Assembly (NCBI GenBank): GCA_026389265.1
Contig: JAPLIE010000156.1
Span: 1-32,004, forward strand
Origin: Cyanobacteriota bacterium
GTDB lineage: Bacteria; Cyanobacteriota; Cyanobacteriia; PCC-6307; Cyanobiaceae
Reading direction: 5' to 3'
Length of the DNA: 32,004 nucleotides
Part shown: one piece after another, positions 8,761 to 21,223 of the stretch
Numbering within the stretch: position 1 is the first letter of the stretch
Layout: each line of letters opens with the position of its first letter
The notes under the pieces: model-generated
Database searches by the model: none
What the model was told of the DNA's origin: nothing
What the model saw: the letters and a program-made list of their open reading frames with translations, nothing else
Position numbers and translations under genes: made by a program

Positions 8761-9834
8761 ATGGTTCTACCGCCCGATGGCCTGCTGCGGCTCACCCCGG
8801 AGGGCTTGTATTGCCCGGCCGCCGGGGCCTGGATTGATCCGGTTCGGCCGGTGCCCAGGGCCCTGCTCACCCACGCCCACGCCGACCATGCCCGCCCCGG
8901 CAGCGGTGCCTACTGGGCGATCGGCAGCAGCGAGGGAATCCTGCGCCGGCGCCTCGGGGCTGGCATTCAGCTGCATCCGATGGCCTACGGCCAGGACCTG
9001 CGGCTCGGGGATGCGCGGATCTCCTTCCATTCCGCCGGTCACGTGCTCGGCTCGGCCCAGATCCGGCTGGAGGCGGGCGGTGAAAGCTGGCTGGTGAGCG
9101 GTGATTACAAGCGCCAGGCCGATCCGAGCTGTGAACCCTTCGAGCCGGTGCGGGCTGATGGGCTGATCACCGAAGCCACCTTCGGGCTGCCGATCTACCG
9201 CTGGCGTACCGGCCAGCAGGTGGTGGCGGAGCTGCTGGACTGGTGGAAGGGAGCTCCAGCTCGGCCCTCGGTGCTCTTCTGCTACGCCTTTGGCAAGGCC
9301 CAGCGGGTGCTGGCGGAGCTGCGGCAGTTGGGGGTGGAGGAGGAGGTGCTCCTGCACGGGGCGGTGCATGCGCTGATCGAGCCCTACCGCCAAGCGGGCG
9401 TGGAGCTGCCCCCCACCCGGCCCCTAGCCGAGCTGGATCGGGGCACCAGCCTGGCCGGGCGCCTGGTGCTGGCCCCACCCGCCGCCGCCGCGAGTAGCTG
9501 GATGAAACGGCTTGCCGGCGCCCAGACCGGCTTCGCCAGCGGCTGGATGGCCGTGCGGGGGGTGCGGCGTCGGCGGGGCTCCGGGCGGGGCTTCGTGCTC
9601 TCTGACCACGCCGACTGGGATGGACTGCTGCGCACGGTGCGCGAGAGCGGCGCCCGAACCGTGCTGGTGACCCACGGCCAGGGGGAGGTGCTGGCCCGCT
9701 ATCTCCGGGAGGTGGAGGGACTCGCCGCCGACCCCCTGGCGACAGGGCGAGCTGCTGAGGCCGAGGGGGAGTCTTCCGAGGATCACGAGCTACCGAACGA
9801 CGCCGTGCCGATCTCTGAGGAGAGAGCCGGATAG
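8761..9834 (+). CDS. ligase-associated DNA exonuclease (metallo-beta-lactamase fold, TIGR04122-type)
   Basis: A 357-residue metallo-beta-lactamase/beta-CASP nuclease of the kind encoded with bacterial ATP-dependent ligases and Lhr helicases. Metal ligands are THAHADHARPGS (H38, H40, D42, H43), AGHVLGSAQI (H94), SGDYK (D115), and later LSDHADW and VTHGQGE. FCYAFGKAQRVLAEL is typical of this branch and of the related mRNA 3'-end processing factors. It probably trims DNA ends in repair; no substrate can be read from the sequence. The C-terminal ~35 residues are Glu-rich and variable, and they overlap the convergent glycosyltransferase by 52 bp. The matching ligase starts 1.9 kb downstream. Confidence 0.9.
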   Translation: MVLPPDGLLRLTPEGLYCPAAGAWIDPVRPVPRALLTHAHADHARPGSGAYWAIGSSEGILRRRLGAGIQLHPMAYGQDLRLGDARISFHSAGHVLGSAQIRLEAGGESWLVSGDYKRQADPSCEPFEPVRADGLITEATFGLPIYRWRTGQQVVAELLDWWKGAPARPSVLFCYAFGKAQRVLAELRQLGVEEEVLLHGAVHALIEPYRQAGVELPPTRPLAELDRGTSLAGRLVLAPPAAAASSWMKRLAGAQTGFASGWMAVRGVRRRRGSGRGFVLSDHADWDGLLRTVRESGARTVLVTHGQGEVLARYLREVEGLAADPLATGRAAEAEGESSEDHELPNDAVPISEERAG

Positions 9835-11720: not shown

Positions 11721-13451
11721 ATGCGTCAGTTCTGCCAGCTGTTTCGGCAGCTTGACCGCAGCACGGGTAGCCAGGAGCGGGTGGCTGCCCTCGTGGCCCA
11801 TTTCGGCAGCGTGCCTCCTGAAGACGCGGCCTGGGCTCTCCACTGCCTTCTGGGGAAGCAGCGGCGCCGCCTGCTCACCGCCCGCCGGCTACGCGAGATC
11901 GCCCTGGACGCCACCGCCATGCCGGAATGGCTGTTCCAGGCCAGCCATGCCCAGGTGGGAGACAGCGCTGAAACGATCGCGCTGCTGGTAGGTGGAAGCG
12001 CGGAGGCAGCCGCAGGGATAGCGAACCGGCCGCAGGAGGATGAAGCCAGAGTCGATGCCGACCAGCCGCTGCATCGATGGATGGAGCGGATCCTGCCCGG
12101 CCTTGCCGCATTGCCGGAGGCAGAGCAGGCGGTGGAAATCCAGCGGCTCTGGAGAGGGCTCTCCGTGGAAGAGGTGCTGGTGATGGTGAAACTCCTCACG
12201 GGCTCCTTCCGGGTGGGGGTGGGTGCGGGGCTCGTGATCCAGGCCTTGGCGACCCTGTCCGGATTGGAGAGCGTTGAGCTGCAGCAGCGGCTGATGGGCC
12301 CCTTTGAGCCAAGTGCAGCAGCGTTTAACGAGCTTCTGCAAACCGAGGCCAGCCAGGAACGCCTCTCCAGCCGCCCCTATCCCTTCTTTCTGGCCAGTCC
12401 GCTCGATGCCGGGCGGCTCAGCGACCTCGATCCGGCCCAATGGCTGGTGGAGTGGAAATGGGATGGCATCCGTGGCCAGCTGATCCGGCGCGGTGGTGCC
12501 GGCTTTCTCTGGAGCCGCGGCGAGGAGTTGATCAATGGCAGTTTCCCCGATCTGCTGGAGCAGGCGGACCCCCTTCCCGATGGTCTGGTGCTGGATGGGG
12601 AGGTGCTGGTCTGGCCCGCCGGGCAAGCGCGGCCGGAACCCTTCGCCGTGCTGCAGCGGCGCCTTGGCAGGCGCAACCCCTCGGCGGCCCTGCTGCGTTC
12701 CATGCCGGCCGCCTTCGTGGCCTACGACCTGCTGGAAAGCGAAGGCATCGACCGGCGCAAGGAGCCGCTCCAGCAGCGCCGGGAGCGCCTTAGGGAGCTG
12801 TTGGCCAGCGGGGTGCCGGGAGCGCTGCGGCTCTCCGATGACCTGCCCCTATCGGACTGGAACGACCTGGAGGCCTGGCGCGAGAAGGCCCGGGATGCCG
12901 GTGCCGAAGGGCTGATGCTGAAGCTTCTGGCCTCGCCCTATGGCAGCGGCCGACGGCGGGGCAGTTGGTGGAAGCACAAACTTGAGCCGATGCACCTCGA
13001 TGCGGTGCTGCTCTATGCCCGCAACGGCAGTGGCCGCCGCGCCAATCTCTACACCGACTACACCTTTGGGCTCTGGGCGTCGGCCGATTCCCCGGGGCCC
13101 GATGCTTCCCCATTGACTTCATTGCCGATGGACGGCACGGCGCCGGGCGGGGCCACACCAGGCCAGGAGCGGCGGCTGGTGAGCTTCGCCAGCGCTTACT
13201 CCGGCCTCAGTGACGCCGAAATCCAAGAGCTGGATCGCTGGATCCGCCGCTACACCACCGAGCGATTTGGACCGGTGCGGGCGGTGGCGCCGGTGTTGGT
13301 ATTCGAACTGGCCTTCGAAGGGGTGCAGCGCTCAAGCCGCCACCGCAGCGGGCTGGCGGTGCGCTTTCCCCGCATCAGCCGCTGGCGCCGCGACAAGCCG
13401 GCCGCCGAAGCCGATACCCTCGCGGCGGCCTTGGCCCTGATCCCCCATTGA
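11721..13451 (+). CDS. ATP-dependent DNA ligase (bacterial Lhr/Lig-associated type)
   Basis: A 576-residue ligase that seals DNA nicks through an AMP-lysine intermediate. The N-terminal ~220 residues form the alpha-helical DNA-binding domain (LTGSFRVGVGAGLVIQAL). The nucleotidyltransferase core follows with motif I EWKWDGIRG (K246), motif III DGEVL (D292-E294), motif IV FVAYDLLE, motif IVa EGLMLK (396-401) and motif V WWKHKL. The C-terminal OB fold ends VFELAFEGVQRSSRH and GLAVRFPRISRWRRDKP, typical of this branch. A Pro/Gly/Ser-rich insertion lies near residues 455-480. This is additional to the NAD-dependent LigA expected for replication. The stop overlaps the helicase start as TTGA, which indicates translational coupling. 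Confidence 0.96.
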   Translation: MRQFCQLFRQLDRSTGSQERVAALVAHFGSVPPEDAAWALHCLLGKQRRRLLTARRLREIALDATAMPEWLFQASHAQVGDSAETIALLVGGSAEAAAGIANRPQEDEARVDADQPLHRWMERILPGLAALPEAEQAVEIQRLWRGLSVEEVLVMVKLLTGSFRVGVGAGLVIQALATLSGLESVELQQRLMGPFEPSAAAFNELLQTEASQERLSSRPYPFFLASPLDAGRLSDLDPAQWLVEWKWDGIRGQLIRRGGAGFLWSRGEELINGSFPDLLEQADPLPDGLVLDGEVLVWPAGQARPEPFAVLQRRLGRRNPSAALLRSMPAAFVAYDLLESEGIDRRKEPLQQRRERLRELLASGVPGALRLSDDLPLSDWNDLEAWREKARDAGAEGLMLKLLASPYGSGRRRGSWWKHKLEPMHLDAVLLYARNGSGRRANLYTDYTFGLWASADSPGPDASPLTSLPMDGTAPGGATPGQERRLVSFASAYSGLSDAEIQELDRWIRRYTTERFGPVRAVAPVLVFELAFEGVQRSSRHRSGLAVRFPRISRWRRDKPAAEADTLAAALALIPH

Positions 13452-16336
13452 CGCGCGGCACCGCTGCAAGACAGGAGACGAAGCAGGGCCGAAACCCTGC
13501 GGGCGCAGCTTTGAATCGCCCCGGCGCCCCGTCCAGCGCCGTGGCCCTACCGTCAGCCTCAGCAAGGGCTCGCGGCAAAGCCAAACGACAGCTGCAGACC
13601 CCACTCCTCCAGCAGGTCCCGACTGCCCCGCAGGGTTGCGCCACCTCTCCCGCCGATCCCCTGGCACCGATTGAGGCCTGGTTTGTGCGCAAGGGCTGGT
13701 CCCCGATGCCCTTTCAACGCCGCTGTTGGCAGGCGTTCCTGGAAGGCCGCAGCGGCCTGGTGCAGGTGCCCACCGGCTCCGGCAAAACCTATGCGGCGGT
13801 CATGGGGCCGATTGCCGAGATGTTGGCCGAGGTGAATGACCAGGTAACGATTTCGGCACCCCCTGTCAGCTGCGGGGAAAGCCCAGCCCAAGCGGAGGCT
13901 CAGAAAGCCCACGGCGCCGAAGGGTGGGGCAGGGGCAAGAGGGGGAAGGGGGCCCAGACCGGGATGGGCGGCCTTGGCATCAACCTGCTGATCCTCACCC
14001 CGTTGCGGGCCCTCAGCCGCGACCTGGCCCTGGCGATCCGCGAACCGATCGAGGCGATGGGCTGGCCCCTGCGGGTGGGCCTGCGCAACGGCGACACCCC
14101 CAGCAGTGAGCGCAGCCGCCAGCTCAAGGCGCCCCCCGAGATCCTGATCACCACACCGGAATCGCTCGCCCTGCTACTGAGCGGCCCCCATGCCGAACGG
14201 CTATTCAGCGGGCTGCGGGCCGTGGTGATCGATGAATGGCATGAACTGCTCGGCAGCAAGCGCGGCAGTCAGGCCGAACTCTGCCTCGGGTGGCTGCGGC
14301 GGCTGCGGCCGGAACTGCTCACCTGGGCGATCAGCGCCACGATCGGCAACCTTGAGGAGGCGGCCCGTGCAGCCGTGGGCACGGGCCGCGAACCGGAGAT
14401 CATCAGCGCCGCCCTGGAGCGCTCCACCTCGATCCGCAGTCTGCTGCCCGAGGCGATCGACGGCTTCCCCTGGGCCGGCCACCTAGGGCTGCGCATGCAC
14501 GAGGTGCTGGTGGGAGCACTCGATCCAGGGATCTCCACCCTGCTGTTCACCAACACCCGCAACCAGGCGGAACGCTGGTTCCAGTGCCTGCGCTGGGCCT
14601 GCCCGGAGATGGAGGGGTCGATGGCCCTGCACCACAGCGCCATCGACCGGGCCGAGCGGGAGGTGATCGAGGCGGGGGTGAAGGAGGGATCGATTCGCTG
14701 GGTGGTGTGCACCAGCTCCCTGGATCTGGGGGTGGATTTCCAGCCGGTGGAGCGGGTGGTGCAGATCGGCAGCGCCAAGAACCTGGCGCGGCTGCTGCAG
14801 CGATCCGGCCGCTCAGCCCACCGGCCGGGGGGCTGCAGCGAGGTGCTGTTCCTACCCACCAACGCCCTGGAACTGCTCGAGGTGAGCGCCATGCGGCGGG
14901 GATTGGCGGCAGGGCTGGTGGAACACCGCACACCGCCCCAGGCACCGCTGGATGTGCTGCTGCAGCACCTCACCGGTCTGGCCTGCGGACCCGGCTTCGA
15001 ACCTGAGCTGGAATGGGAAACGGTGCGCCGCTGCTGGAGCTACAGGGATCTGAGCCGCGACGACTGGGATTGGAGTCTGCGGTTTCTTGAGGACGGCGGG
15101 GATTGTCTGGGGGCCTACCCGCGCTTCCGCAAGCTTGAGCGGGAGGCCCTCACGGCGGGTGATGCGTCGCCGGGGGAAACGGATCCGAACCCGAAGCCAT
15201 CTCCAAATGCATCAGCTCCGGTTGCGGCGGATGTTTCCGGGAGCCCCGGAATGGCGGAGCCGTTCCGCTACCGGGTGAAGGAAACGGCGATCGCCCGCCT
15301 CCACCGGCTCCAGATCGGCACGATCACCGCCGATCTCGCCGTCACGGTGCGCTACGTGCGCGGGGCGGTGCTCGGCCATGTGGAGGAGATGTTCGTGTCG
15401 CGGCTCAAGCCAGGCGACACCTTTTTCTTTGCGGGCCGCGGCCTGGAGTTCGTGCGGCTGCGGGAGATGACCGCCCAGGTGAAGGCCTCCAGCAAGAAGA
15501 GCAGCACCGTGCCTGCCTGGGCCGGCGGCCAGCTGGCCCTCTCCGATCTGCTCAGCCACCACCTGCGCCAGGAGGTCAGCCGCTGCGCTGCCGGTGAGCT
15601 GGACAGCCCCGAGCTTCTGGCCCTGGCTCCTCTGCTCGATCGCCAGAGCGATCTTTCCCGCATCCCCGGGCCCGGCGAGCTGCTGGTGGAGGTCTGCCGT
15701 AGCCGCGAGGGCAGCCACCTTTACGCCTATCCGTTTGAGGGACGCTTCGTGCATGAGGGCATCGGCTTCCTCTGGGCCTGGCGTCTGGCTCGCCACCAGC
15801 GGGGCACGATCACGGTGTCGGTGAACGATTACGGCTTTGAGTTGCTGGCCCCCCGCGGCTATCCGTTCGCCGAGCTGTTCGAGGAGCACGGTGAGGCCCT
15901 GCTGGCGGGCGACGGCCTGCTGGACGATCTGGCGATGGCGATCAACCTCTCGGAGCTCTGCCGCCGCCGCTTCCGCGCCATCGCCCAGGTGGCTGGGCTG
16001 GTGAACAACGGCTATCCGGGCAAGGGAAAGAGCGGCGGCCAGCTGCAGATCAGTGCGGCCCTGCTCTTCGATGTGTTCAGCCGCCATGAACCCGGCAACC
16101 GGCTGCTGGCTCAGACCAGGCAGGAGGTGCTGCGCGAACAGCTGGAGGTGGAGCGGATCGCGGCGGCCCTGGAGCGGCTGCGCGCCGCCACGGTGGTGCT
16201 GGAGCACACGCCTAGGCCGGGTCCCCTGGCTTTTCCGCTGCTGGCCGAGCGGCTCAACAACCGCATGAGCAATGAATCCGTTCTGGAGCGGCTCGCCCGG
16301 CTGCGGGCGGAAGCGGAGCGGGCGGAGAGGCCTTGA
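13448..16336 (+). CDS. ligase-associated DEXH-box DNA helicase (Lhr-type, TIGR04121)
   Basis: A 962-residue superfamily 2 helicase of the Lhr-core type found with ATP-dependent ligases. Walker A is VPTGSGKT (K113), motif Ia LILTPLRALSRDLA, motif Ib TTPESL, Walker B VIDEWHELLGSKRG (262-265), motif III WAISATIGN, motif IV LLFTNTRNQAERW, motif V CTSSLDLGVDFQPV and motif VI LLQRSGRSAHRPGG. The C-terminal half carries the Lhr-type winged-helix and associated domains. By family it is a 3'-5' ATP-dependent translocase in DNA repair. Two odd low-complexity inserts occur: residues ~130-175, between motifs I and Ia, and ~575-605 (Pro/Ser/Ala). The start is TTG 13448, coupled to the ligase stop; the conserved part begins near residue 75, so a later start is possible. 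Confidence 0.94.
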   Translation: MTRGTAARQETKQGRNPAGAALNRPGAPSSAVALPSASARARGKAKRQLQTPLLQQVPTAPQGCATSPADPLAPIEAWFVRKGWSPMPFQRRCWQAFLEGRSGLVQVPTGSGKTYAAVMGPIAEMLAEVNDQVTISAPPVSCGESPAQAEAQKAHGAEGWGRGKRGKGAQTGMGGLGINLLILTPLRALSRDLALAIREPIEAMGWPLRVGLRNGDTPSSERSRQLKAPPEILITTPESLALLLSGPHAERLFSGLRAVVIDEWHELLGSKRGSQAELCLGWLRRLRPELLTWAISATIGNLEEAARAAVGTGREPEIISAALERSTSIRSLLPEAIDGFPWAGHLGLRMHEVLVGALDPGISTLLFTNTRNQAERWFQCLRWACPEMEGSMALHHSAIDRAEREVIEAGVKEGSIRWVVCTSSLDLGVDFQPVERVVQIGSAKNLARLLQRSGRSAHRPGGCSEVLFLPTNALELLEVSAMRRGLAAGLVEHRTPPQAPLDVLLQHLTGLACGPGFEPELEWETVRRCWSYRDLSRDDWDWSLRFLEDGGDCLGAYPRFRKLEREALTAGDASPGETDPNPKPSPNASAPVAADVSGSPGMAEPFRYRVKETAIARLHRLQIGTITADLAVTVRYVRGAVLGHVEEMFVSRLKPGDTFFFAGRGLEFVRLREMTAQVKASSKKSSTVPAWAGGQLALSDLLSHHLRQEVSRCAAGELDSPELLALAPLLDRQSDLSRIPGPGELLVEVCRSREGSHLYAYPFEGRFVHEGIGFLWAWRLARHQRGTITVSVNDYGFELLAPRGYPFAELFEEHGEALLAGDGLLDDLAMAINLSELCRRRFRAIAQVAGLVNNGYPGKGKSGGQLQISAALLFDVFSRHEPGNRLLAQTRQEVLREQLEVERIAAALERLRAATVVLEHTPRPGPLAFPLLAERLNNRMSNESVLERLARLRAEAERAERP

Positions 16337-17091: not shown

Positions 17092-17343
17092 ATGGCCCAG
17101 TCACCCGCCGCCCAGCCCTCCCGGGTCAGCCGCCAAGCCGATGAGACCAATGACCGTCAGATGCACCTGGCCCAGCTCCGCCGCGTCGAATTGATCAACG
17201 GCCGCGCCGCCATGATGGGCCTGGTGATTGGCGTGGTGGTCGAAGGCCTCACCGGCTTCGGCATCCTCCACCAGATCGGCCTCGGGGCCCTGGTGGATGG
17301 CTACAGCGCCTGCCGCACCCAGTACCTGCCCTTCTGCTTCTGA
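17092..17343 (+). CDS. high-light-inducible protein (HLIP, CAB/ELIP family)
   Basis: An 83-residue thylakoid protein with one chlorophyll-binding helix. The hallmark ExxNGRxAMxG is intact as ELINGRAAMMG (residues 33-43), followed by the hydrophobic run LVIGVVVEGLTGFGIL. HLIPs bind chlorophyll and carotenoid and protect photosystem II assembly intermediates; transcription usually rises with excess light. The soluble N-terminus of ~30 residues is Gln/Ser/Arg rich. The tail after the helix is longer than usual and carries two cysteines (C74 and C82) in an aromatic ending YLPFCF. It stands alone, 100 bp after the GGCT gene. No clear Shine-Dalgarno or promoter could be assigned. Confidence 0.92.
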   Translation: MAQSPAAQPSRVSRQADETNDRQMHLAQLRRVELINGRAAMMGLVIGVVVEGLTGFGILHQIGLGALVDGYSACRTQYLPFCF

Positions 17344-17461: not shown

Positions 17462-19687
17462 TCAACCCGCGCCCAACAGCCAGCGTCCCGCCGAAGCCAG
17501 GATCAGGGTGCATCCCGCCTGAACCAACCAGCCGAGGCGATCGGGCAGTAGTAAACGACGCAGCAACACAACGGAACCGATCAGGCCCAGGCCCACCGTC
17601 ACGGTCTGGGAGAAGCCGATCACATGGGGATCGGCAGCCCAGGCTGGCAATCCCGCCAGGACCGCGGCCAGGGAGGTGGCTCCTTCGCCGAGCCAGGATC
17701 TGGCCAGAAGCGGTGCCGCGCTCACCGGCAGCACCATCCCTGCCTCGGCCATGCCGATGGCCAGGTGATGGGCCAGCATCAAGCCCCAAAGGAGGGGAAG
17801 CAGGGCATACAGCAGCAGCCAGGGTCGTTCCCGGCCCGGCAACAGGCGGGCGGCTGCGTTGCGCGCCACCAGCCAGAGGCCGGCGGGCAGGGCCAGGGCC
17901 AGGCATGCGATCGCCAGACGGGGCAGCAGGGGTCCTTCGCTCAAGGACAATGCCTGTTGAGCCTTTAAATCCAGACCACCGGCGAGCGTCGTCGCCGCCG
18001 GCCCATGGCCGCCTGCCAGCGCCGCCACCTTTCCAGGCAGCCACCCCAGCAGCCGCTCCCAGTGGTGCAGGCAGAGTCCCCCCGCCAGCACCAGGATTAA
18101 CCCAGCCTCTCCGGCAGGGGGGTCCATCGACCGCTGCAGGTCAGCGGCCGGGGGGCGCAGCCGCAGGGTCACGGAGCGGTGAGGGCAGGCCTGGGCGCAG
18201 GTGAGGCAGAGCACGCAGTTGCGGTTGTCGGTGAGGTGGGCCGGATGGGTGCCCACCGGGCAGCCCGCCGTGGCGTAGCCCTCCCCCTCAGCCGGCCCTC
18301 CCTTGAAGCAAGCAAAGCTGGAGCAGCTACCGCTGCAGGTGCCGATCTGGGCCCGCAGCTCACTGATGGCCAACTTGGCGAACAGACCGTTCATGCCGCC
18401 CACGGGGCAGAGATAGCGGCACCAGAAGCGCTTCTCAAAAACCAGCGACCCCACCACGGCGCCGGCGGTGATCAGCAACAGCAGGCAGCTGCTCAGCCAG
18501 GCGGTGTTCTCGAGGTTGCCCACCGCTTCCCAGAGGAGGATCGCAGCGAAACCGGCAGCGAGCAGGGGGGCCGCCCAGCGGTCGCTGTCGCCCCGGGGCC
18601 AGCGCTGCGGTTGCCAGCCCAGGAGTCGCGCCAGCCGCTGGCTGATCTCCCCCCACACCATGAACGGGCAGAAGGAACACCACAGCCGCCCCACTAGGGG
18701 ATAGGTGAGCAGGATCAGCGGCCACCACCAGGCCCAGAAGAGATTGAGGCCGCCGTTATGGGCCCGGTCCTGGGGGCCCAGCCAGAGCCAGAGGTTCACC
18801 AGCACGAACACCCAGCTCACAACCCCAAACAGCAGGGTGTTCCACAGGCGGGGCGAGCGCATCAGGTTGCGCAGCTGCGGCTTCCAGCGCCACAGCTCGA
18901 AGCGAGCGCGGGCCTGCTGGCGGCTTCCAGTCCAAAACACATCTTCAGGCAGTTCGACCGGCCGGCTGGTGGCGCACTGGCGCAGAGCCCGATCGATCAG
19001 CTGGCTGAGTTCGCGAATGTTGCCGGGGAAGTCGTAGGTCTGCAGCCGCTTCACCAGGGTCGCACTCACCTGGGGCGGGGGGCTCCAGCCCAAGCTGCGG
19101 GCCTTCTGGCGCACGCCATAGCGCAACCATTCGCCCAGGTCCTGGCGGCGCACCCGTAGCGGCGGCACCCGAATCGGCCGATCGATCGCCTCGAAGCCAT
19201 CGAGGTGGGTTTCGGAGGTGAGGTAGATCCTGCCGCGGAAATCGTGCTCCAGCCCGTCGGGCCCCTGCCAGCGGCGTTCCAGGGCTAGCTCTCGCAGGCG
19301 GGGCAGCAGGACCGGGTCCACCAGATCGACCTGGTCGATCAGGAGCCCGCCGGCGCCGAGGATCTCCAGGAGGGCCGTGCCTTCGGACCCCGGCGCGAAC
19401 AATTCGGCGCCATCGGGGCGCAGCAGGGCGCCATTGAGACGCACCAGCAACTGCTTGCGAGCCGCGGAGCCGTAGTGGATCAGGGCGGCAATGTTGTCCT
19501 TTTCCAGGCCAGGCTCGCCGCTGATCAGCACCGGAGCCCCGCTGGGATCGGCGGCGGCCAACCGGATCGCATCACGAAGTTTCTGGGCGTAGCGGCTACT
19601 CCCCACGATCCCCCGCCTTACCCGGCCCAGCAGCAAGGGGGCGAGACGGCGCAGGTCGGCCGCTGTGGGGTTGGCATCCATAAGCAT
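17462..19687 (-). CDS. fusion of a degenerate sigma-54-activator-like AAA domain with a NapH/NosR-type membrane polyferredoxin
   Basis: A 741-residue protein in two parts. Residues ~25-250 follow the sigma-54 activator AAA+ domain: VLISGEPGLEKDN is a damaged Walker A (canonical GETGTGKE), GGLLIDQVD replaces Walker B GGTLFLDE, and FPGNIRELSQLIDRAL matches the sensor II end. The GAFTGA sigma-54 contact loop and the Fis-type HTH are missing. Residues ~280-510 form a membrane polyferredoxin with CSFCP (C337, C340), CRYLCP (C423, C427), Cys at 451, 455, 460 and 476, and a ferredoxin motif CVLCLTCAQACP (C491-C501). Further membrane helices fill the C-terminus. It could be a redox-sensing or electron-transfer membrane protein. 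ATG 19687 or ATG 19681 may be the start. Confidence 0.85.
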   Translation of the reverse strand: MLMDANPTAADLRRLAPLLLGRVRRGIVGSSRYAQKLRDAIRLAAADPSGAPVLISGEPGLEKDNIAALIHYGSAARKQLLVRLNGALLRPDGAELFAPGSEGTALLEILGAGGLLIDQVDLVDPVLLPRLRELALERRWQGPDGLEHDFRGRIYLTSETHLDGFEAIDRPIRVPPLRVRRQDLGEWLRYGVRQKARSLGWSPPPQVSATLVKRLQTYDFPGNIRELSQLIDRALRQCATSRPVELPEDVFWTGSRQQARARFELWRWKPQLRNLMRSPRLWNTLLFGVVSWVFVLVNLWLWLGPQDRAHNGGLNLFWAWWWPLILLTYPLVGRLWCSFCPFMVWGEISQRLARLLGWQPQRWPRGDSDRWAAPLLAAGFAAILLWEAVGNLENTAWLSSCLLLLITAGAVVGSLVFEKRFWCRYLCPVGGMNGLFAKLAISELRAQIGTCSGSCSSFACFKGGPAEGEGYATAGCPVGTHPAHLTDNRNCVLCLTCAQACPHRSVTLRLRPPAADLQRSMDPPAGEAGLILVLAGGLCLHHWERLLGWLPGKVAALAGGHGPAATTLAGGLDLKAQQALSLSEGPLLPRLAIACLALALPAGLWLVARNAAARLLPGRERPWLLLYALLPLLWGLMLAHHLAIGMAEAGMVLPVSAAPLLARSWLGEGATSLAAVLAGLPAWAADPHVIGFSQTVTVGLGLIGSVVLLRRLLLPDRLGWLVQAGCTLILASAGRWLLGAG

Positions 19688-19880: not shown

Positions 19881-20507
19881 ATGACCCTCACCCTCTACGG
19901 AGCCGCCCGCAGCCGGGCCTCGATGGTGCGCTGGTACCTGGAGGAGAAGTCGATCCCCTACGCGTTCGTGCAGCTCGATCTCAAGAGCGGCGAACACCGC
20001 CACGAGCCTTTCACCACCATCAATCCCTTCGGCAAGGTGCCGGCCTTGGTGGACGACGCCCTCGCCAGCCCCGATGGAGGCCCCCTGAAGCTGTTCGAGA
20101 GCGGCGCCATCCTGTTCCACCTGGCCGAGCGTTACGGCGAGGAGTTCGACCCCCAGGGGCCCGGCGGGGCTGAGGGGGCCGCCGCCCGGAGATCCCTGAC
20201 GGTCCAGTGGCTCCTGTTCGCCAATGCCAGCCTCGGTCCGGCGATGTTCCAGCTGGAAGCGCGGCCGGAGGAGTTCGCCCGCCAGCTCGCCACGGTCGAT
20301 GGGCTGCTGGCGGCAGGCCCCCACCTGCTCGCCGGCACCTGGGGTGATCCCGGCTGGGGAGCGGCCGATTGCGTGCTGCAGTCGTACCTGGCCTACATCC
20401 CCCTCTTCTGCCCCCAGGTGGACCTCAGCCCCTATCCGGCGGTGCAGGAGGCCATTGAAGCCACCAGCAACAGGCCCACCTACCAGAAGGCGATGGGGGT
20501 GGGTTGA
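19881..20507 (+). CDS. glutathione S-transferase family protein
   Basis: A 208-residue soluble protein with an N-terminal thioredoxin-like domain: TLYGAARSRASMVRWYLEE, then TINPFGKVPALVDD with the cis-Pro glutathione-binding turn, and LFESGAILFHLAERYG with the conserved Glu-Ser pair. An alpha-helical C-terminal domain includes AADCVLQSYLAYI. It probably conjugates or reduces substrates with glutathione; the Ser near residue 11 or 14 is the likely catalytic residue. ATG 19881 starts directly at the conserved strand; the frame runs upstream to 19785 without conserved sequence. Its stop overlaps the PdeM start as TTGA, so the two are probably made from one message. Confidence 0.9.
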   Translation: MTLTLYGAARSRASMVRWYLEEKSIPYAFVQLDLKSGEHRHEPFTTINPFGKVPALVDDALASPDGGPLKLFESGAILFHLAERYGEEFDPQGPGGAEGAAARRSLTVQWLLFANASLGPAMFQLEARPEEFARQLATVDGLLAAGPHLLAGTWGDPGWGAADCVLQSYLAYIPLFCPQVDLSPYPAVQEAIEATSNRPTYQKAMGVG

Positions 20508-21223
20508 GCATCGGCTCCGGCCAGCACTCCTGGATCTGGAGGGGTCACCGCCTCGATCTGCTGGCCGAGCGGGCTGTGTGGGACCCGCAGCAGCGCACGC
20601 TGCTGGTGGCGGATCTCCATCTCGGCAAAGCCGAAGTGTTCCAGGCCCATGGCGTGGCCCTACCCAGCGATGGGGATGCCGCCAACCTCAATGCCCTGTT
20701 GGAGCTGGCCCACCACTTCCTTCCCGAGCAGGTGGTGGTGCTCGGGGATCTGATCCATGGTCGGGTGGGCATCACCGCCGAACTGCGGCAGAAACTGGTG
20801 GCCCTTCCCGAACTACTGGGTTGCCCGCTGCGGTTGATCGATGGCAACCACGAACGGGGCAGCTGGCTGGAAGGCCTGCCGCGGGAACCTTCTTGTGCCC
20901 TCGGCCCCCTTTGGCTCAGCCATGGGCCCGAACCCCGGCCAGACCATCTCAATCTTTGCGGCCACCTGCATCCGGTGGCGGTGGTGGGCCATGGGGCCGA
21001 CCGGCTGCGGCTGCCCTGCTTCGCCTATCGGCGAGGGGGGGATCGAGGAAGCCGTGGTCCGAACGGCGAACAACTGGTGCTGCCAGCCTTCGGTTCCTTG
21101 ACGGGAGGCCATCCCTGCTCAGAGGTTGAGGGCCTCTGGCTGGTGGCCGAGGGAACCGTGGTTCCCTGGCGAACCCCGCGGCCCACCAACGGGCCTCCCT
21201 GCCACGCCGGCGATGGAACCTAA
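20504..21223 (+). CDS. pdeM: ligase-associated metallophosphoesterase, PdeM type (TIGR04123)
   Basis: A 239-residue calcineurin-like phosphoesterase. Metal-binding motifs are LLVADLHLGKAEVF (D37, H39), VVLGDLIHGR (D82), LIDGNHERGS, WLSHGPEP and LCGHLHPV. The ADLHLGKA form and the length identify the branch normally encoded with the Lhr-type helicase, ATP ligase and exonuclease, all three of which lie upstream in this window. In that set it is thought to clean or cut DNA ends. The start is TTG 20504, whose last two bases are shared with the GST stop (TTGA). It is separated from the rest of its set by about 4.2 kb of unrelated genes. Confidence 0.88.
   Translation: MSIGSGQHSWIWRGHRLDLLAERAVWDPQQRTLLVADLHLGKAEVFQAHGVALPSDGDAANLNALLELAHHFLPEQVVVLGDLIHGRVGITAELRQKLVALPELLGCPLRLIDGNHERGSWLEGLPREPSCALGPLWLSHGPEPRPDHLNLCGHLHPVAVVGHGADRLRLPCFAYRRGGDRGSRGPNGEQLVLPAFGSLTGGHPCSEVEGLWLVAEGTVVPWRTPRPTNGPPCHAGDGT

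What the first reader, a model, noticed from the sequence alone, without database searches (positions are those of the whole stretch)
17462..19687. Degenerate sigma-54 activator domain fused to a membrane polyferredoxin
Cyanobacteria lack sigma-54, and this AAA domain has lost Walker A and B residues, the GAFTGA loop and the HTH. It is nevertheless fused to a NapH/NosR-like protein with well-kept Cys motifs. This suggests a former regulator domain reused, perhaps as a scaffold or a ligand-sensing part of a redox membrane protein.
Basis: partly seen in the sequence, partly recalled or inferred. Interest (0 to 1): 0.6.

Follow-up and report, generated by a model that had tools for sequence, protein, structure and literature searches.

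The report
Dead AAA+ module on membrane polyferredoxin
Cyanobacteria carry an old, widely kept membrane iron-sulphur protein joined to the engine of a gene-activator that has lost its moving parts and its sigma-54 partner, which suggests a transcription motor was turned into a part of a redox machine.

Summary
The finding is real. One 741-aa ORF (17462-19687, minus) joins a sigma-54-activator AAA+ module to a NapH/NosR-like membrane polyferredoxin. The predicted AAA part matches FleQ (Z 19.9). It is an old cyanobacterial family: it or its paralogue is in 200 of 291 Cyanobacteriia genomes. Sigma-54 is effectively absent.

Corrections and additions:
(1) Walker A is not lost: Lys63 and Asp64 are kept, and 6 of 37 family proteins have a complete activator-type P-loop; here its last Gly became Glu. 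Walker B Glu, GAFTGA, Arg-finger segment and HTH are missing.
(2) 28 of 32 sampled loci outside the window's clade carry a full N-terminal cyclic-nucleotide-binding (CNB) domain; it is missing in three places of the tree while the AAA stayed.
(3) A paralogue keeps GxGKT and lies by cysteine synthase in 8 of 13 loci.
(4) All 12 cluster-type cysteines are invariant in 50 of 50 proteins.

Best reading: a cytoplasm-facing Fe-S electron-transfer or redox-sensing membrane protein with the AAA kept as a non-hydrolysing assembly or sensing module. Function untested.

The parts
17462..19687 (-). single ORF, 741 aa: degenerate bEBP-type AAA+ module fused to membrane polyferredoxin (family called P1 here)
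19184..19615 (-). AAA+ alpha/beta subdomain, residues 25-168
   Evidence: Pfam PF00158 on residues 27-90; AF2 model and VIA-align Z 19.9 to FleQ over residues 22-254
19493..19519 (-). Walker A-like P-loop GEPGLEKDN, residues 57-65; last Gly replaced by Glu, Lys63 kept
19328..19345 (-). Walker B-like LLIDQV, residues 115-120; Asp118 kept, catalytic Glu is Gln119
18938..19183 (-). AAA lid subdomain with sensor-II-like FPGNIREL, residues 169-250
   Evidence: Pfam PF25601 37 bits, residues 178-241
18143..18835 (-). four-helix NapH/NosR-like membrane polyferredoxin module, residues 285-515
   Evidence: Fer4_5 and TIGR02163; hydropathy and AF2 helices
18668..18679 (-). C337-x2-C340-P at the end of TM2
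   Evidence: invariant in 50 of 50
18407..18421 (-). C423-x3-C427-P after TM4
   Evidence: invariant in 50 of 50
18260..18337 (-). C451-x3-C455-x4-C460-x15-C476-P, atypical [4Fe-4S] ligand set
   Evidence: invariant in 50 of 50
18185..18217 (-). C491-x2-C494-x2-C497-x3-C501-P, classical [4Fe-4S] motif
   Evidence: invariant in 50 of 50; Fer4 16.7 bits, under its cut-off of 21.1
17465..18142 (-). C-terminal multi-helix membrane region, residues 516-741
   Evidence: full-length counterpart in a stand-alone Deinococcus protein

Best explanation
The gene encodes a membrane-anchored polyferredoxin. Its twelve cysteines can hold up to three [4Fe-4S] clusters on the cytoplasmic face next to a membrane part that could reach the quinone pool. 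It arose in cyanobacteria when a CNB-AAA activator protein lost its DNA-binding end and was joined to a NapH/NosR-like membrane module. The AAA part is a pseudo-ATPase: it keeps the fold, the lid and part of the P-loop but cannot be a sigma-54 activator and very probably cannot hydrolyse ATP. I propose that it holds the protein in an oligomer, or acts as a docking or nucleotide-sensing surface, beside the Fe-S clusters, and so tunes electron transfer between a soluble carrier and the quinone pool. Shown: fusion, predicted fold, motif losses, Cys conservation, spread, CNB absences, purifying selection. Inferred: order of evolutionary events, cluster number, topology, oligomerisation, electron path.
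For: 12 Cys invariant in 50 of 50 P1+P2 proteins, while the Walker B Glu is in none of these 50 and the GAFTGA loop and R-finger segment are missing from every P1 and P2 row shown. AAA kept where CNB is absent: of 32 class P1 loci 28 have a full CNB, 2 a remnant and 2 none; in the window's clade 0 of 80 named loci have it in this gene (the profile was built from 40 of the same proteins, but Pfam PF00027 agrees for L054, L055, L144 and L156 and does not find it in L173 and L176). The CNB-less proteins sit in three separate places of the tree. AAA under purifying selection: dN/dS 0.07 against the 93% relative L056, beside 0.09 for the polyferredoxin part. The variant P-loop is itself conserved: GEPGLEKD in 93 of 102 order-level ORFs. 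AAA and all Cys loops fall on the same, positively charged side. The membrane module exists alone in Deinococcus and haloarchaeal plasmids, so it is a module in its own right.
Against: No partner or pathway: in 32 class loci (21 with at least 2.5 kb on both sides) no neighbour recurs in more than 5; the window gene stands alone between genes on the other strand. Presence of P1 does not follow hydrogenase (10 of 24 with P1 against 2 of 6 without), PFOR (12 of 24 against 1 of 6) or cytochrome bd (3 of 24 against 0 of 6) in 30 chosen family genomes. Against six further relatives the AAA part is less constrained than the polyferredoxin part (dN/dS 0.19-0.59 against 0.09-0.17). A complete bEBP-type P-loop in 6 of 37 P1 means nucleotide binding in the family is not excluded. 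The membrane model matches no solved structure and its cluster region has pLDDT below 50. Oligomerisation was not modelled.
Confidence: 0.5

Rival explanations
1. Membrane redox sensor: the Fe-S module reads the redox or iron state and the AAA surface passes it on by binding or releasing a soluble regulator; in CNB-bearing relatives a small ligand adds a second input.
For: Activator-derived module plus CNB (Pfam 38.9-52.4 bits in L054, L055, L144, L156) is a regulatory build; paralogue P2 keeps GxGKT in 13 of 13 and lies by a cysteine-synthase gene in 8 of 13 loci and by cydAB in 3 of 11, which I read as a low-oxygen or sulphide-type context.
Against: CNB absent in three places of the tree; no regulator gene recurs beside P1; no HTH or other output domain found.
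Confidence: 0.25
2. NapH-like quinol/ferredoxin oxidoreductase in which the AAA part is a passive fold that only helps folding or membrane insertion.
For: Residues 286-515 have the lowest dN of six domains in 6 of 8 comparisons and the second lowest in the other 2; NapH/MauN profile hits of 40-55 bits in the window protein, L054 and L144; two proteins annotated NosR/NirI match by tblastn.
Against: NapH score far below the family cut-off 213; no gene recurs beside it in more than 5 of 32 class loci; the AAA part has its own invariant residues (GEPGL.KD, VPPLR.RR).
Confidence: 0.18
3. It is still a transcription activator acting through sigma-70, as TyrR or VpsR do (recalled precedents).
For: AAA part aligns to VpsR 7v2b with Z 18.1.
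Against: No DNA-binding domain found; the C-terminal half is predicted to be membrane-embedded.
Confidence: 0.03
4. Decaying gene: the AAA part is a relic on its way out.
For: Three genomes have split frames (L132; L045/L160; L161); AAA dN/dS reaches 0.59 against L061.
Against: dN/dS of the AAA part below 1 in all 7 comparisons that could be computed, conserved variant P-loop, and a single ORF in 77 of 80 named loci.
Confidence: 0.04

Closest known systems
Bacterial enhancer-binding proteins (NorR, NifA, FleQ, NtrC1, PspF)
   Same: AAA fold with lid, acidic residue after the P-loop Lys as in bEBPs, FPGN-x-x-EL sensor II; NorR profile 59 bits here and 101 bits in relative L054
   Different: No GAFTGA, no Walker B Glu, no R-finger segment, no HTH found, no sigma-54 in the genome; membrane anchored
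NapH/MauN and NosR/NirI-type membrane polyferredoxins
   Same: Helices with CxxCP and CxxxCP loops followed by ferredoxin-type Cys motifs
   Different: Extra C-terminal helices, atypical second cluster motif, AAA fusion; NapH score far below cut-off
Stand-alone '4Fe-4S binding protein' of Deinococcus ficus plasmid pDFI1, and more distant ones of haloarchaeal plasmids
   Same: The Deinococcus protein is a full-length counterpart of the membrane half: 29% identity over all 368 residues searched
   Different: No AAA or CNB domain by Pfam in the two tested, L184 and L185
Synechocystis slr0593, annotated 'cAMP binding membrane protein' (link recalled; one passage seen in PMC3516471)
   Same: The annotation would fit the CNB plus membrane build of this family

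Membership tests
sigma-54 activator (bEBP) | AAA+ fold of the bEBP type | tested here: met
   (fold by prediction)
sigma-54 activator (bEBP) | Walker A GxxxxGK[DE] | tested here: inconclusive
   Lys and Asp kept, last Gly is Glu in the window; complete in 6 of 37 P1; acidic residue after Lys normal for bEBPs
sigma-54 activator (bEBP) | Walker B Asp-Glu | tested here: not met
   Window DQ; NN in 25 of 31 class P1; Glu at the second place in none of 37 P1 and 13 P2
sigma-54 activator (bEBP) | GAFTGA L1 loop | tested here: not met
   Loop shortened and motif absent in the P1 and P2 rows; the two comparison activators have GAFTDA and GAYTGA
sigma-54 activator (bEBP) | Arginine fingers | tested here: not met
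   Segment deleted in the P1 and P2 rows
sigma-54 activator (bEBP) | DNA-binding HTH | tested here: not met
   No HTH family at E up to 1 in Pfam; the place is taken by the membrane half
sigma-54 activator (bEBP) | Sigma-54 in the same genome | tested here: not met
   0 hits in own genome, 95% complete; class: 4 of 194 with short marginal hits
NapH/MauN family | Score over NCBIfam TIGR02163 cut-off | tested here: not met
   44.1 bits against 213
NapH/MauN family | Membrane Fer4_5 Cys motifs | tested here: met
   PF12801 two stretches, 35.7 bits; Cys invariant
NapH/MauN family | Quinol oxidation | not testable with these tools
   needs biochemistry
Cyclic-nucleotide-binding (CNB) protein | CNB domain | tested here: not met
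   Absent in the window protein and in this gene in 0 of 80 named clade loci found; full in 28 of 32 class P1 loci

The most novel reading that the evidence does not exclude
A hexameric activator ring was turned into a non-hydrolysing, possibly nucleotide-sensing collar that gathers membrane Fe-S electron-transfer units, so that energy or ligand state (ATP through the P-loop, most of all in paralogue P2, and a CNB ligand in many relatives) sets electron flow into or out of the plastoquinone pool.
Probability: 0.2. Interest if true: 0.75.

Novelty: new variant of a known kind. Interest (0 to 1): 0.52.

Why it matters
A published survey reported sigma-54 and its activators absent from all 29 cyanobacteria examined, with activators filtered by GAFTGA (PMC3162934, passages read); such a filter would drop these proteins. 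Two plasmid-borne paralogues are annotated 'nitrogen assimilation regulatory protein' and 'cyclic nucleotide-binding domain-containing protein'. If the reading holds, a transcription motor was converted to a redox protein early in cyanobacteria, and much of the class carries a membrane Fe-S protein, for which nine literature searches found no study, that could feed or read the plastoquinone pool.

Tried and rejected
Working activator: rejected on missing Walker B Glu, GAFTGA, R-finger segment, HTH and sigma-54. Two genes or a frameshift artefact: rejected. Recent local fusion: rejected. Operon function: no neighbour recurs in more than 5 of 32 class loci; the group of 5 looks like an ABC-type ATPase at varying places, and shadow ORFs of the gene itself were set aside. 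Within the window's clade gene order is partly kept but mostly on the other strand. Co-occurrence with hydrogenase, PFOR and cytochrome bd: no link with P1 (24 genomes with P1 and the 6 larger ones without it that one search listed by name); both P2 genomes in that set have cytochrome bd. Solved-structure match for the membrane half: none (best Foldseek E 0.54; best Z 5.6), which shows neither a new fold nor a known one. Promoter, terminator and Rfam scans: nothing above chance or threshold. Papers: searches found no study of this protein; only listings were seen except passages of PMC3516471, PMC3162934 and PMC7175178. That TyrR and VpsR work with sigma-70 is recalled. I also noted by eye that the usual cyclic-nucleotide-binding Arg seems missing from the CNB domain of these relatives; the motif is recalled and I did not test it, so I build nothing on it.

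Limits of the counts: one search counts P1 or P2, since P2 also passes its threshold with that query; its 20 listed misses are all of the window's family and 71 more are not listed. In the set of 32 class loci L046 and L162 are the same place, and 10 loci have only about 1 kb of flank. Conservation searches left out rows ORD_L129 and CLS_L181 (ambiguous or truncated), while one search kept them; identical rows were counted once. Alignments A1 and A2 hold the window plus 58 of the 80 named loci: 74 were long enough, 59 remained after near-duplicates were dropped, and I left out L104 by hand for its insertion. The tree tool counted 2 changes for the CNB label because the 26 CNB-bearing P1 rows were in no group; 'three places' is my reading of the drawn tree, in which the exact place of the window's clade inside P1 is not resolved. 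dN/dS is Nei-Gojobori, near saturation for all but L056, and could not be computed for the AAA part against L117. The hydropathy scan also flagged residues 105-123 inside the AAA core, which I take as false.

Full report
What is there. The ORF at 17462-19687 (-) encodes 741 aa from an ATG. The own genome holds one copy at E <= 0.01. Residues 25-250 form an AAA+ module of the sigma-54-activator type: Pfam Sigma54_activat 22.4 bits and AAA_lid_14 37 bits, NorR/NtrX/NifA profiles 47-59 bits, PDB chains of NifA, FleQ and PspF at E 2e-20 to about 1e-16 with a 59-row profile, and an AF2 model that aligns to FleQ 6jdi with Z 19.9, rmsd 2.8 A, 225 residues. Residues 285-515 form a NapH/NosR-like membrane polyferredoxin, followed by further membrane helices.

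State of the AAA motifs. P-loop: GEPGLEKDN in 26 of 37 distinct P1 proteins, the window among them; GEPGLGKDN, a complete activator-type P-loop, in 6 of 37. A review states that activators have D/E after the Lys (PMC7175178, passages), so the Asp is no loss. Walker B: DQ in the window, NN in 25 of 31 class P1; the catalytic Glu is in none of 37. GAFTGA and the R-finger segment are deleted by comparison with two activator-type proteins from genomes of the same phylum but another class, whose loops read GAFTDA and GAYTGA. No HTH was found. Sigma-54 is not in the own genome; 4 of 194 class genomes have only short marginal hits in ORFs of 53-107 aa, one of them over the cut-off by 0.9 bits.

Family and history. 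The window query finds 81 of 200 order genomes and 111 of 386 phylum genomes (8 of the 111 are weak partial hits outside the class). A CNB-bearing relative as query finds P1 or its paralogue P2 in 200 of 291 class genomes at E <= 1e-120. Pfam finds an N-terminal CNB domain in L054, L055, L144 and L156 (38.9-52.4 bits) and not in L173 and L176. A home-made CNB profile, built from 40 of these proteins, finds it in full in 28 of 32 class P1 loci, as a remnant in 2 (L173, L175), and not in L176 and L179; in 10 of 11 P2 loci; and in this gene in none of the 80 named loci of the window's clade (the L098 hit is another ORF). On the tree the CNB-less proteins sit in three separate places (the window's family 100/100; L176+L179 beside CNB-bearing L055, 98/94; L150 inside P2, 100/100), and the two remnants each pair with a CNB-bearing protein (100/99 and 93/91). 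The AAA part stayed in all of them. Selection on it is purifying: dN/dS 0.07 against L056 (polyferredoxin part 0.09); against six further relatives it is weaker, 0.19-0.59 beside 0.09-0.17, and one comparison was saturated.

The Fe-S part. Cys 337, 340, 423, 427, 451, 455, 460, 476, 491, 494, 497 and 501 are invariant in 50 of 50 distinct P1 and P2 proteins. By hydropathy and charge the AAA part and all these Cys lie on the same, presumably cytoplasmic, side. Cluster number is inferred. The same membrane half, with its C-terminal helices, is a stand-alone protein in a Deinococcus plasmid (29% identity over the whole 368-residue query) and more weakly in haloarchaeal plasmids; two rhizobial proteins annotated NosR/NirI match over about 100 residues. 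With the whole window protein as query 9 plasmid records match; in the two cyanobacterial ones the match starts at residue 183, in the other 7 it stays within residues 305-559, so no fusion was seen there outside cyanobacteria.

Paralogue P2. It has GxGKT in 13 of 13, although the first Gly of the classical Walker A is Ala or Ser in 8 of them; it has no Glu at the catalytic Walker B place, no GAFTGA and no R-finger segment. It lies beside a cysteine-synthase gene in 6 of 11 genome loci and 2 of 2 plasmids, and beside cydAB in 3 of 11; single cases lie near a photosystem II reaction-centre gene, a nifH-type gene and a CCG-domain gene.

Mechanism. The two ends point the same way: residues for Fe-S clusters kept without exception, residues for hydrolysis and sigma-54 contact lost in every row compared, fold and a variant P-loop kept by selection. 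I therefore favour a membrane Fe-S electron-transfer protein with the AAA as a non-hydrolysing assembly or sensing module (0.5), over a pure redox sensor (0.25) and an enzyme with a passive AAA (0.18). The AAA surviving where CNB is gone argues that it is not merely the relay between a CNB sensor and the membrane. Results against a firm choice: no recurring neighbours (flanks), no co-occurrence with three redox enzymes tested, weaker constraint on the AAA than on the Fe-S part in most comparisons, a low-confidence cluster region and no structural match for the membrane half.

Literature. [quoted passage not shown] The only lead to a studied gene is slr0593, annotated cAMP binding membrane protein and listed with its antisense RNA in an iron-deprivation data set (PMC3516471, one passage); I could not test whether it is this family.

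Noticed in passing
8761-9834 (+), 11721-13451 (+), 13448-16336 (+), 20504-21223 (+): A full ligase-associated DNA damage response set: exonuclease (444 bits), ATP-dependent ligase, DEXH helicase and PdeM endonuclease, all over NCBIfam cut-offs. The AAA-polyferredoxin gene lies between helicase and PdeM on the other strand; within the 5 kb flanks held, PdeM is found in 51 and the helicase in 30 of 80 named loci.
   Followed up: partly
L142-L152, L182, L183: Paralogue P2 with a GxGKT P-loop, next to a cysteine-synthase gene in 8 of 13 loci and cytochrome bd genes in 3 of 11; two copies are on plasmids.
   Followed up: partly
L073: A contig titled Bifidobacterium breve MAG carries a 70% identical cyanobacterial copy: probably a mislabelled or mixed bin.
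   Followed up: no
L161, L045/L160, L132: Split reading frames of this gene; in L161 the split falls near residue 303, between AAA and membrane parts. Error or real fission was not told apart.
   Followed up: no
17092-17343 (+): Small protein with a chlorophyll a/b-binding (Chloroa_b-bind) match, 26 bits, downstream of the gene; near it in only 5 of 80 named loci.
   Followed up: partly
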